Source of the DNA: a virus
Strand: one strand, 5' to 3'
IMG/VR virus record: IMGVR_UViG_3300023179_000070
Location: 1-64,000 of that record
DNA length: 64,000 nucleotides
Shown: in pieces, positions 26,097-54,625 of the stretch
How positions within the stretch are numbered: the stretch's first letter is position 1
How the letters are laid out: every line of letters starts with the position of its first letter
Program-made: the position numbers and the translations under genes
The notes under the pieces: generated by a model
What the model saw: the letters and a program-made list of their open reading frames with translations, nothing else
The model's database searches: none
Told to the model about the DNA's origin: nothing

Positions 26097-26558
26097 ATGA
26101 CATTTCAAAAATTATTAGATTCTCAGGCATTTTTTAATATTTTTATTAAAAATGATATTTTTTTTAATTCTTTAAAACAAAAATTTCCAGAAATTTTAGC
26201 AGATCTTACTAGTTCTAGAAATAATCCAAATTGTTCATGTAAAAATCGAGTAAAAGCTTATTTGGAATCAAAAATTACTAATGAAGTAAATTATTTTAAC
26301 GATTTAATAAATATTGAAGAAATTAAAAAATTAATATCAGAAAAAAACGAAGAAATTATAAATTCTATTCCATCAAAACTAAGTCATCTTGATCAAATAT
26401 ATAATTTGCATAAAAATAGTGGTGGAAAAATATTTCAAATTGGCAAAACCGAACAAGATTGGGCAAATCTTGCTAAAAAAATAACAGATGAAAGAATCAA
26501 TTTTAAATCTTTTTCTATTATTGAAAAAGAAGATAAATTAGTGGTTTATTTTATTTAA
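26097..26558 (+). CDS. Conserved-looking protein of unknown function
   Basis: 153 residues, helical and Lys/Asn/Ile rich. It contains NPNCSCKNRVKAYLESKI, a Cys-x-Cys pair followed by a helix, and ends in a beta hairpin (FSIIEKEDKLVVYFI). No family is recognised. TAATAT lies 6 nt and TATAAT 8 nt before the ATG, again with no Shine-Dalgarno sequence. It is followed immediately by a membrane protein gene (ATG directly after its stop). Confidence 0.5.
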   Translation: MTFQKLLDSQAFFNIFIKNDIFFNSLKQKFPEILADLTSSRNNPNCSCKNRVKAYLESKITNEVNYFNDLINIEEIKKLISEKNEEIINSIPSKLSHLDQIYNLHKNSGGKIFQIGKTEQDWANLAKKITDERINFKSFSIIEKEDKLVVYFI

Positions 26559-52603: not shown

Positions 52604-52610
52604 TATACAC
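52604..52610 (-). promoter_or_regulatory. GTGTATA box, 7 nt before start codon
   Basis: Minus strand: GTGTATA, tacttat, ATG at 52596. A variant of the GTGTAAT box; no Shine-Dalgarno sequence. Confidence 0.4.
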
Positions 52611-53161
52611 TATTTTTTAATTAAATTTATAAAATTAACCATTTGATCTTTTGTAAAATCATTTTTCATTACATTAATACAATAACATACAAATTCTACA
52701 TTTCCTTTTATATATCCTATATTCGGATCGATTCTATCTAGGCTTGCTTTTGTAGGAGTTTTTTTAATATCTTCATCGCCACTTGTTCTACTTAGTTCCA
52801 TTTGTATTTTTGTATATGGACAAATCCCATTTTGTTTATCCCAAATTTCTTTTAAATATTCTGTAGTTAAATCTGTTATGTATCCTTTTTGTTTACTTCG
52901 TGATCTAGCTTTATTTGCGTGATACTTAAATGGACTATATTGATCTAACCTATTAGCTTCGTGTCCTTTTAGTAAAGATATATTACCTTTATTTTTTTCT
53001 AGTTTACTTGGATTGTTTTTATAATCTGCTTTTCCAGAGCATTTTAAGCTACAATAAAATTTATTTTGACCAGCTTTTGCTTTTCTTTTATAATCGCTCT
53101 GTCTTATTTCGTGCTCTTTATTGCATTGAGCACAGATTATTTTTGTCTTTTTTATGTTCAT
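52610..53161 (-). CDS. HNH endonuclease with N-terminal zinc finger
   Basis: 183 residues. The N-terminus has CAQC ... CSLKC, a four-Cys zinc finger. The C-terminal half is an HNH-type nuclease: GICPYTKIQMELS, ASLDRIDPNIGYIKGNVEFVCYCINVMKNDFT (with D-R-I-D, N and H-like positions). Such enzymes are often homing endonucleases. It lies 65 nt downstream of the tmRNA 3' end, on the same strand, and has its own sigma70-type promoter. This suggests it spreads next to, or together with, the tmRNA gene. Confidence 0.8.
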   Translation of the reverse strand: MNIKKTKIICAQCNKEHEIRQSDYKRKAKAGQNKFYCSLKCSGKADYKNNPSKLEKNKGNISLLKGHEANRLDQYSPFKYHANKARSRSKQKGYITDLTTEYLKEIWDKQNGICPYTKIQMELSRTSGDEDIKKTPTKASLDRIDPNIGYIKGNVEFVCYCINVMKNDFTKDQMVNFINLIKK

Positions 53162-53226: not shown

Positions 53227-53614
53227 TGGACCCGAGAGGAATTGAACCTCTGTCTTTTAAAAATCTAAATTAAAATACTACAAGTTTAGTTCTTTTTGTT
53301 TTTAGCTTTATATAGATAAAGAACAAACATACTTAGCGATTTTATTTTTAATACTTAATATTAATAGAATAAAAAAACTATTAATAATAAGACATCTAAT
53401 TCCGCAACTATCCAATAGATGTGTCAAGGTAGTCACGCTGTAGAACTTAGGCTACAGAAGCGGTCATCTCAACAAGAGGAACTCTTGCAGAGATATGACC
53501 TTTATATTTTGCTGTTTTGGCAGTTAATATAATTGAAACTTTTTAAGGAGTCCTCGATTCAACCTCCACTTGCATTTCAATTTATTTTCTTAAAATCGAA
53601 ACCAGTACGGGCCC
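53227..53614 (-). ncRNA. ssrA: tmRNA (one-piece), with 24-residue tag frame
   Basis: The 5' end GGGCCCG (53614-53608) pairs with the 3' CGGGTCC (53234-53228) as a 7-bp acceptor stem. GTACTGGTTTCGA follows the 5' strand as in tmRNAs, and the T arm AGAGG-TTCAATT-CCTCT is present near 53235-53252. CCA is not encoded. The tag frame starts with GCC at 53521-53519 after TTAACT and ends with TAA at 53449-53447, inside the hairpin CTGTAG-CCTAAGTT-CTACAG, as in typical tmRNAs. The tag begins AKTAKYKG and ends EMTASVA. A GTGTAAT box (53642-53636) lies 21 nt upstream. The gene lies among phage virion genes and so is phage-borne. It would rescue stalled ribosomes and tag proteins for proteolysis. Confidence 0.92.
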
Positions 53615-53635
53615 AATGTTAAAGAACTAACTAAT

Positions 53636-53642
53636 ATTACAC
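53636..53642 (-). promoter_or_regulatory. GTGTAAT box upstream of tmRNA
   Basis: Minus-strand GTGTAAT 21 nt upstream of the mature tmRNA 5' end. It suggests the tmRNA is expressed with late genes. The short leader would be removed by RNase P. Confidence 0.5.
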
Positions 53643-53686
53643 ATTATAAAGCTTTTAATAATTTTTGACAATCTTTTTTTAAATTA

Positions 53687-54625
53687 TTAATCGCCGCAAT
53701 CTTCCTTATCGTCATAATCATGTTTTGATGTTTTTTGGGCGCAACCCATAAAATTTTCATCATTTACAGTTCCCGAATCTTTTTGAGAATTATTTGAACC
53801 TTTTGTTTCTAATCCGTCTTGGGTAATTGCAACTACTTGATGTACATAATAGGATTCTGTTCCATCTCCATTATTATGAATAAATTCAATTGTATCGCCA
53901 ATTCGTACATCTTCTAAATCACAAAGAAGATTTGTTATTATTTGTTCGCCAGATTTTAGATCTGGGTGCATCGAAGAACCCTTTATTTTAGAAATCTTAA
54001 ATCCTCTTTTTAGTTTAAGTTGCGATCTTCTTGGAAGAGTATTTTGTGGATGGTTTGTTTCTTTATATGGATCGCAATCATTTTTTGAATCTTTTGGTTT
54101 CATATCTTTTGCTGCCTCAGTTAATTCTTTTGTTTGATCTTTATCTGCTAATTCATTACATGATGGACAATCTGCTCCACAATCATGCTCATTTTCGTAA
54201 GATTCTATTCTTGTGTCGTATTGTATTTTTATTTTATATTCAGCTAACATTGCGGCTGGTATATCATCTCCTGTTTCACAATTTACCCATGAATAATTTG
54301 TGAGACATTGATCAAAAGTTGCATCAATATCTTTAATGTCTGGTGGATTTTGATTTTTTGTTATCAATGTTCCTCCGCATGTATTTATGCACGCTTTAGA
54401 ATCTTGATTTGAATTTTTAGGAATAGAATTCTCTATTTTAACTCCAGATTTTTTATCTAAGATAATTTTCGGAGGTAAAACTCCTGAAGTGCCCTGATTT
54501 TTTTTAAGTGTCCAGGGCCCAGGAGGTCTAGATGGAATAGTTTTTAAACCACCAATGCGCTCACCATATATAATTGCATCTGTAGTTATAGTAGTCCATT
54601 TAGTTTTTCTTTTACAACATCCCAT
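53687..54625 (-). CDS. Cys-rich protein with C-terminal signal-peptidase (S24/S26)-like domain
   Basis: 312 residues. The first 200 are Cys- and Pro-rich and acidic (for example C149 CGADCPSC), without an evident family. Residues 210-295 fit the S24/S26 serine peptidase fold: KIKGSSMHPDLKSGEQI (nucleophile candidate S218, MxP), RIGDTIEFIH, YVHQVVAIT (H262) and ETKGSNN where many homologues have KGDNN. The pattern is closest to archaeal/ER-type signal peptidases (Ser-His type). No membrane segment is present. It could process a phage or host protein or act as a non-catalytic structural domain. It is 7 nt downstream of the gene at 54633-56123. Confidence 0.55.
   Translation of the reverse strand: MGCCKRKTKWTTITTDAIIYGERIGGLKTIPSRPPGPWTLKKNQGTSGVLPPKIILDKKSGVKIENSIPKNSNQDSKACINTCGGTLITKNQNPPDIKDIDATFDQCLTNYSWVNCETGDDIPAAMLAEYKIKIQYDTRIESYENEHDCGADCPSCNELADKDQTKELTEAAKDMKPKDSKNDCDPYKETNHPQNTLPRRSQLKLKRGFKISKIKGSSMHPDLKSGEQIITNLLCDLEDVRIGDTIEFIHNNGDGTESYYVHQVVAITQDGLETKGSNNSQKDSGTVNDENFMGCAQKTSKHDYDDKEDCGD

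What the first reader, a model, noticed from the sequence alone, without database searches (positions are those of the whole stretch)
53227..53614. Phage-borne tmRNA with an unusual long tag
The one-piece tmRNA is complete: 7-bp acceptor stem, T arm, resume GCC after TTAACT, stop in a hairpin loop. It encodes a 24-residue tag from AKTAKYKG to EMTASVA. Typical bacterial tags are around 8-15 residues and end in ALAA or similar; this one ends ASVA. A phage tmRNA could rescue ribosomes on cleaved mRNAs or redirect tagged proteins to a protease. The last residues might change recognition by host ClpXP. Known examples of phage tmRNA exist (for example in mycobacteriophages), so presence alone is not new; the tag is what is unusual.
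Basis: partly seen in the sequence, partly recalled or inferred. Interest (0 to 1): 0.75.

Follow-up and report, generated by a model that had tools for sequence, protein, structure and literature searches.

The report
Phage tmRNA with long structured tag
An uncultured phage carries its own gene for the RNA that rescues stuck ribosomes, and it marks unfinished proteins with a 24-residue tag that is preserved in 73 other phage contigs and that no sampled bacterium appears to share; the gene type is known, but this tag and the hairpin folded into its code are new.

Summary
A one-piece tmRNA lies on the minus strand at 53614..53227 (ARAGORN; Rfam RF00023, 105.4 bits, E 3.9e-40). It encodes AKTAKYKGHISARVPLVEMTASVA. 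The window belongs to an 82-kb virus record with no SmpB.

Relatives indicate that it is functional and selected. ARAGORN finds the same 24-codon tag type in 73 other IMG/VR contigs; 14 of 18 relatives of at least 70 kb have the gene. The reading frame is under purifying selection (dN/dS 0.20; 0.07 in codons 1-17). Helices covary, G3-U70 is kept, and a sigma-70-type promoter is conserved in 59 of 60 upstream sequences.

Length alone is not exceptional: 11 of 82 sampled other viral-contig tmRNAs have tags of 20 residues or more, up to 31. What is unusual: a conserved 15-bp hairpin inside the tag code, with synonymous compensatory changes; a strongly conserved tag amino half; an -SVA end; no tmRNA with this tag found in 84,980 species genomes; a hypervariable T-stem; and an HNH gene beside the tmRNA in half the relatives.

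Best reading: a working phage trans-translation RNA that uses host SmpB, AlaRS and proteases. New variant of a known kind. The host, and whether the tag changes protease choice, are unknown.

The parts
53227..53614 (-). complete one-piece tmRNA gene (388 nt, CCA not encoded)
   Evidence: ARAGORN; RF00023 105.4 bits; covariation in 55 unique relatives
53447..53521 (-). tag reading frame: resume GCC (53521-53519), 24 codons, UAA stop; AKTAKYKGHISARVPLVEMTASVA*
   Evidence: 52 unique homologous frames, all 75 nt with no indel; dN/dS 0.20 in frame 0 against 2.2 and 1.1 in the other frames
53522..53526 (-). UAACU upstream of the resume codon; U and A stand at the places of E. coli U85 and A86
   Evidence: sequence; role of A86 from PMC2481249
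53462..53500 (-). extra hairpin inside the tag ORF (15 pairs, codons 8-20), absent from the RF00023 consensus
   Evidence: MFE -20.1 kcal/mol, reached by 1 of 2000 synonymous recodings; compensatory third-position changes at the pair tmRNA nt 129-141; 98.4% of cells paired against 94.4% after synonymous shuffles, 0 of 200 reach it; insertion in the CM alignment
53438..53457 (-). helix H5 with the UAA stop in its loop
   Evidence: pairs tmRNA nt 158-163/172-177 formed in all relatives scored
53533..53567 (-). pseudoknot PK1
   Evidence: GGAG/CUCC always paired; UUGAA/UUCAA 84% paired with compensatory changes
53392..53433 (-). pseudoknot PK2
   Evidence: stem 100% paired; knot 83% paired, 3 pairs with double changes
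53339..53386 (-). pseudoknot PK3
   Evidence: stem 85% paired, 6 of 9 pairs with double changes; knot 86% paired
53285..53338 (-). PK4 region (assigned by position; pairs not counted here)
   Evidence: RF00023 alignment
53235..53251 (-). T arm; its stem is hypervariable among relatives
   Evidence: 13 T-stem haplotypes, at least 33 changes on the tree; entropy 1.3 bits against 0.07-0.58 in other segments
53228..53234 (-). 3' strand of the acceptor stem with U70; pairs with 53614-53608, including G3-U70; discriminator A at 53227
   Evidence: every unique tail listed ends GUCCA
53643..53671 (-). sigma-70-type promoter TTGTCA-N17-TATAAT for the tmRNA
   Evidence: 11 of 12 consensus matches; TTG...TANNNT at this place in 59 of 60 unique upstream sequences
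53615..53642 (-). 5' leader GTGTAATATTAGTTAGTTCTTTAACATT: GTGTAA motif plus conserved GTTCTTT box
   Evidence: leader conserved in 59 of 60; GTGTAA in 34 of 60
52610..53161 (-). HNH / endonuclease VII-like gene 65 nt downstream of the tmRNA
   Evidence: PHROG 3322 endonuclease E 7e-25; present beside the tmRNA in 29 of 56 unique loci

Best explanation
The feature is a working phage-encoded tmRNA. Proposed course: host RNA polymerase transcribes it from its own sigma-70-type promoter; host enzymes trim the ends and add CCA; host AlaRS charges it with alanine through G3-U70; host SmpB and EF-Tu deliver it to ribosomes stalled during infection. Translation resumes at GCC, melts the conserved hairpin, adds 24 residues and stops at UAA in H5. 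This frees the ribosome, and the hydrophobic C-terminal ...SVA sends the unfinished protein to a host protease. Shown here: gene, fold, selected reading frame, conserved hairpin, promoter-like sequence, absence of SmpB and ClpP from the record. Inferred: charging, SmpB use, translation through the hairpin, proteolysis. The hairpin probably folds the 39 extra nucleotides away so that the longer mRNA-like loop keeps a compact, nuclease-resistant shape. The conserved first 17 residues probably serve a specific reader (adaptor or protease), but this is a weaker inference.
For: ARAGORN and RF00023. Gene found above the family cut-off in 22 of 80 polymerase relatives (19 and 3), in 14 of 18 records of at least 70 kb and 8 of 8 of at least 95 kb; tag type in 73 other contigs. 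Frame-specific purifying selection: dN/dS 0.20 in frame 0 against 2.2 and 1.1 in the other frames; 0.07 in codons 1-17. Hairpin with synonymous compensatory changes. Covariation in acceptor, T-stem, PK1, PK2 and PK3. Promoter conserved. No SmpB and no ClpP in the window's record or 15 relatives, while controls ring. E. coli precedent for U85/A86 frame setting (PMC2481249).
Against: No expression, charging or tagging data. The host is unknown, so neither its tmRNA and tag nor its proteases can be compared. The record is incomplete, so an SmpB or protease gene could lie outside it. PK4 was not tested pair by pair. Codons 18-21 drift (dN/dS 0.70 for codons 18-24), so the protease signal may rest on ...SVA alone. 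The dN/dS values are simple pairwise Nei-Gojobori proportions over related sequences.
Confidence: 0.8

Rival explanations
1. Captured host tmRNA: a recent copy of the host gene picked up by recombination or as an attachment site, with the host's ordinary tag.
For: Many tmRNAs on viral contigs are probably host copies: 62 of 82 sampled end LAA, often ANDENYALAA. The host is unknown, so identity with its tag cannot be excluded.
Against: The tag pattern in 84,980 species genomes gives 56 hits, none a tmRNA. The gene is conserved over deep phage divergence with its own promoter and leader and in two tag subclades. It lies between phage genes.
Confidence: 0.1
2. Non-tagging role: an SmpB sink or decoy that blocks host trans-translation, as proposed for the TLD-only tmRNA of mycobacteriophage DS6A.
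For: Such a molecule inhibits tmRNA in E. coli (reported in PMC4131195 and PMC11915505). No SmpB is encoded in the record, so it must share the host's.
Against: A decoy needs no tag frame, yet the frame is strongly selected, never broken by an indel, and U85/A86 equivalents, stop codon and PK1-PK3 are kept.
Confidence: 0.05
3. The ribosome bypasses the hairpin, so the real tag is short (about AKTAKYK plus the last residues), as in programmed bypassing.
For: The hairpin is stable, conserved and in frame; removing it would leave a tag of ordinary length.
Against: Codons inside the hairpin are conserved at the protein level: third positions vary, first and second rarely. A bypassed stretch should not keep its codons. 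No bypass signals were sought or found.
Confidence: 0.05
4. Functional tmRNA whose long tag is incidental: only the last residues matter and the rest is a spacer.
For: In E. [quoted passage not shown] Other viral tmRNAs have long, unrelated tags.
Against: Codons 1-17 are the most constrained part (dN/dS 0.07), more than codons 18-24 (0.70).
Confidence: 0.2

Closest known systems
Bacterial one-piece tmRNA (ssrA; Rfam RF00023)
   Same: Acceptor with G3-U70, T arm, PK1-PK3 and a PK4 region, U85/A86-type resume context, alanine resume codon, stop in H5
   Different: 24-residue tag against the usual 10; an extra conserved hairpin in the tag ORF; ...SVA end; CCA not encoded; hypervariable T-stem
Phage tmRNAs (mycobacteriophages Bxz1, Wildcat and others, Bacillus phage G: PMC4131195; Bradyrhizobium elkanii phages: PMC12656738)
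   Same: tmRNA gene in a phage genome, presumed to use host SmpB
   Different: No sequence match in 50,697 phage records; unrelated phage group and tag
Two-piece tmRNA of methylophage Melnitz and pelagiphages (PMC9004378)
   Same: Aquatic phage-borne tmRNA with its own regulation
   Different: Two-piece and riboswitch-linked there; one-piece with a sigma-70-type promoter here
Long Mollicute tags (Mesoplasma florum mf-ssrA)
   Same: Long tag, not ending LAA; precedent for a tag read by a different protease (Lon) (PMC9382460)
   Different: Ends NYAFA; bacterial; no resemblance in sequence
30- to 31-residue tags (A.N.VDMAPS..EAD.ILA..G...AA) of more distant phage relatives (L053, L105, L250, L282 and others)
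   Same: Some lie in polymerase relatives (about 67% identity); long tag; predicted hairpins in the tag ORF
   Different: CCA encoded, unrelated tag sequence, few T-stem types

Membership tests
tmRNA (RF00023) | Covariance-model match over the whole length above the gathering score | tested here: met
   105.4 bits against 47, model 1-374
tmRNA (RF00023) | Alanine identity: G3-U70 in a 7-bp acceptor stem | tested here: met
   Sequence; GGG...GUCCA in the unique relatives listed
tmRNA (RF00023) | Pseudoknot PK1 upstream of the resume codon; downstream pseudoknots | tested here: met
   PK1, PK2 and PK3 with compensatory changes; PK4 only by position
tmRNA (RF00023) | Tag frame starting after the conserved U-A at the U85/A86 positions and ending at a stop in H5 | tested here: met
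   UAACU|GCC...UAA; frame 0 selected
tmRNA (RF00023) | Hydrophobic C-terminal degradation signal | tested here: inconclusive
   ...SVA (or ...IAA in the sister clade) is hydrophobic but not LAA; degradation untested
tmRNA (RF00023) | Alanylation, SmpB binding, tagging of stalled chains | not testable with these tools
   Needs biochemistry
Phage-encoded tmRNA | Lies in a viral genome with viral neighbours and is conserved among related phages | tested here: met
Two-piece (permuted) tmRNA | Circularly permuted gene with intervening sequence | tested here: not met
   Standard one-piece order

The most novel reading that the evidence does not exclude
The phage tag is a purpose-made signal that differs from the host's: its conserved first 17 residues bind a specific host or phage factor and send proteins from stalled ribosomes to a different fate than host tagging would, while the T-stem is remade repeatedly to escape a nuclease (a defence enzyme or the neighbouring homing-type HNH) that recognises this part of the tmRNA or its gene.
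Probability: 0.15. Interest if true: 0.8.

Novelty: new variant of a known kind. Interest (0 to 1): 0.48.

Why it matters
Phage tmRNAs are known mostly as scattered annotations and their purpose is unproven. Here many related genomes show selection acting on the tag peptide itself, on a second RNA structure inside its code, and on a dedicated promoter. That argues that phages use tagging and not merely ribosome release, and it gives concrete sequences with which to test it. The hypervariable T-stem beside a come-and-go HNH gene makes a conflict over this RNA or gene testable.

Tried and rejected
Host identification failed: no tmRNA with the tag pattern in the GTDB species genomes, no similar phage record by DNA or tag, no PDB match to the tag. 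The IMG-isolate contigs that carry the sister tag look like phages and gave no host. Weak Shine-Dalgarno use (15 of 50 genes against 7% background) did not settle a host phylum. Length alone as the novelty: rejected after sampling 82 other viral-contig tmRNAs. Chance hairpin: rejected. Relic or pseudogene: rejected. BoxA-like reading of the leader GTTCTTTAACA: from memory, not tested.

Full report
WHAT IS THERE. ARAGORN finds one tmRNA in the window, at 53227-53614 on the minus strand, with the tag AKTAKYKGHISARVPLVEMTASVA. Rfam RF00023 matches it over its whole model at 105.4 bits (E 3.9e-40), and it folds much better than shuffled sequence (z -4.9). The acceptor stem has 7 pairs including G3-U70, the determinant for charging with alanine (established knowledge). 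CCA is not encoded. The resume codon GCC follows UAACU, with U and A at the places of E. coli U85 and A86; A86 is the key frame-setting base (PMC2481249). The UAA stop lies in the loop of H5.

WHERE IT LIES. The window is part of an 82,052-base virus record with tail genes, a DnaE-type polymerase, a replicative helicase, a RecA-like protein, ThyX and sugar-nucleotide genes. The record and 15 long relatives have no SmpB or ClpP match, while the same searches ring in the control bacteria. The RNA would therefore have to use host SmpB and proteases.

RELATIVES. A search with the polymerase gave 80 relatives in IMG/VR. Of these, 22 carry a tmRNA above the family cut-off (19 and 3). Most records are fragments. 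Among those of at least 70 kb, 14 of 18 have it, and so do all 8 of at least 95 kb. A DNA pattern for the tag start found 85 viral contigs; ARAGORN confirms a tmRNA of this tag type in 72 of them, and one more came from another scan, giving 73 besides the window. Two tag clades exist: AKTAKYKGHISARVSLVE.T.SVA and AKSAKLKGSFSLRVSH....LIAA, both 24 residues. More distant polymerase relatives have unrelated 30- to 31-residue tags.

THE TAG IS SELECTED. In 52 unique tag frames, all 75 nt long with no indel, dN/dS (pairwise Nei-Gojobori, main clade) is 0.20 in the tag frame and 2.2 and 1.1 in the other two. It is 0.07 for codons 1-17 and 0.70 for codons 18-24, although the final S-V-A is invariant in the main clade. 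So the frame is very probably translated, and its amino half is the most constrained part.

A HAIRPIN INSIDE THE TAG CODE. Codons 8-20 form a 15-bp hairpin that RF00023 lacks; the covariance model treats this stretch as an insertion. In the window it has -20.1 kcal/mol; only 1 of 2000 synonymous recodings with the phage's codon use does as well. Among 45 unique main-clade sequences, 98.4% of cells pair, against 94.4% after shuffling synonymous codons (0 of 200 reach the observed value). The pair at tmRNA nt 129-141 switches between A-U, U-A and C-G, at third codon positions on both sides, with at least 6 changes of state on the tree, mismatches included. The other tag clade forms a similar hairpin from different bases. 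Without the hairpin codons the tag would have ordinary length. Some other long viral tags also fold within their code (for example L323 z -2.95, L392 z -4.07), so this may be a general habit of long-tag tmRNAs; only the window's group was tested for covariation.

THE REST OF THE RNA. In 55 unique full-length relatives, PK1, PK2, PK3, the acceptor and the T-stem all show compensatory changes. PK4 was not tested by pairs.

EXPRESSION. A near-consensus promoter, TTGTCA-N17-TATAAT, ends 28 nt upstream of the 5' end (11 of 12 matches). A sequence of that form is present in 59 of 60 unique upstream regions, followed by a conserved leader. The leader also carries GTGTAA, a motif that precedes many genes of this phage (12 of 25 copies lie within 40 nt upstream of a start, background 2.1%, p 3e-14).

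HOW UNUSUAL. In a sample of 82 other tmRNAs on viral contigs (many of them probably host copies), the median tag is 10 residues, 11 have at least 20 and the longest is 31; 62 end LAA and none ends SVA. A curated set of 97,179 sequences also has 10 as the commonest length (PMC11915505). Length alone is therefore not novel. The tag pattern matched 56 places in 84,980 species genomes, none of them a tmRNA: ARAGORN found none, 52 lie in open frames of at least 100 codons, and the other 4 lack tmRNA landmarks. The tag is thus phage-specific, or the host is outside that collection.

SIDE OBSERVATIONS. The T-stem has 13 haplotypes that need at least 33 changes on a tree built from the rest of the RNA. 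Its entropy is 1.3 bits against 0.07-0.58 in other segments. The 30-residue-tag relatives have only about three T-stem types. An HNH gene stands 35-70 nt or so downstream in 29 of 56 unique loci and is absent from the others, which is how a mobile homing-type gene behaves. A link between the two is speculation.

VERDICT. A functional phage tmRNA (about 0.8). Shown: gene, fold, selected frame, conserved hairpin, promoter-like sequence, no SmpB in the record. Inferred: charging, use of host SmpB, proteolysis, and the role of the amino half. It is a new variant of a known kind.

Noticed in passing
53235-53251 (T-stem) and the same place in relatives: T-stem is hypervariable with near-perfect compensation: 13 haplotypes, at least 33 changes on the tree, while the rest of the tmRNA is conserved.
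   Followed up: partly
52610-53161 (-): HNH / endonuclease VII-like gene just downstream of the tmRNA in 29 of 56 unique relatives, absent in the others; a promoter-like TAGACA-N17-TATAAT of its own lies at 53195-53167.
   Followed up: partly
whole 82-kb record, e.g. 4818+, 10858+, 39598+, 53642-, 56457+, 58167+: GTGTAA motif directly upstream of many start codons (12 of 25 copies; p 3e-14), possibly a phage promoter element.
   Followed up: partly
L053, L105, L250, L254, L258, L262, L267, L282, L298, L299, L305: A second set of phage tmRNAs with 30- to 31-residue tags such as ANNVDMAPSLDEADAILAKFGWAEEAAVAA, CCA encoded.
   Followed up: partly
53687-54625 (-): Protein upstream of the tmRNA has a stretch GSSMHPDLKSGE that recalls LexA/signal-peptidase-type serine proteases by eye; no Pfam or PHROG match.
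   Followed up: no
53615-53630 (-): Leader GTTCTTTAACA resembles the boxA antitermination element; recalled from memory, not tested.
   Followed up: no
26097-26558 (+): Weak Pfam match to a protelomerase muzzle domain (E 7e-4, below the curated cut-off).
   Followed up: no
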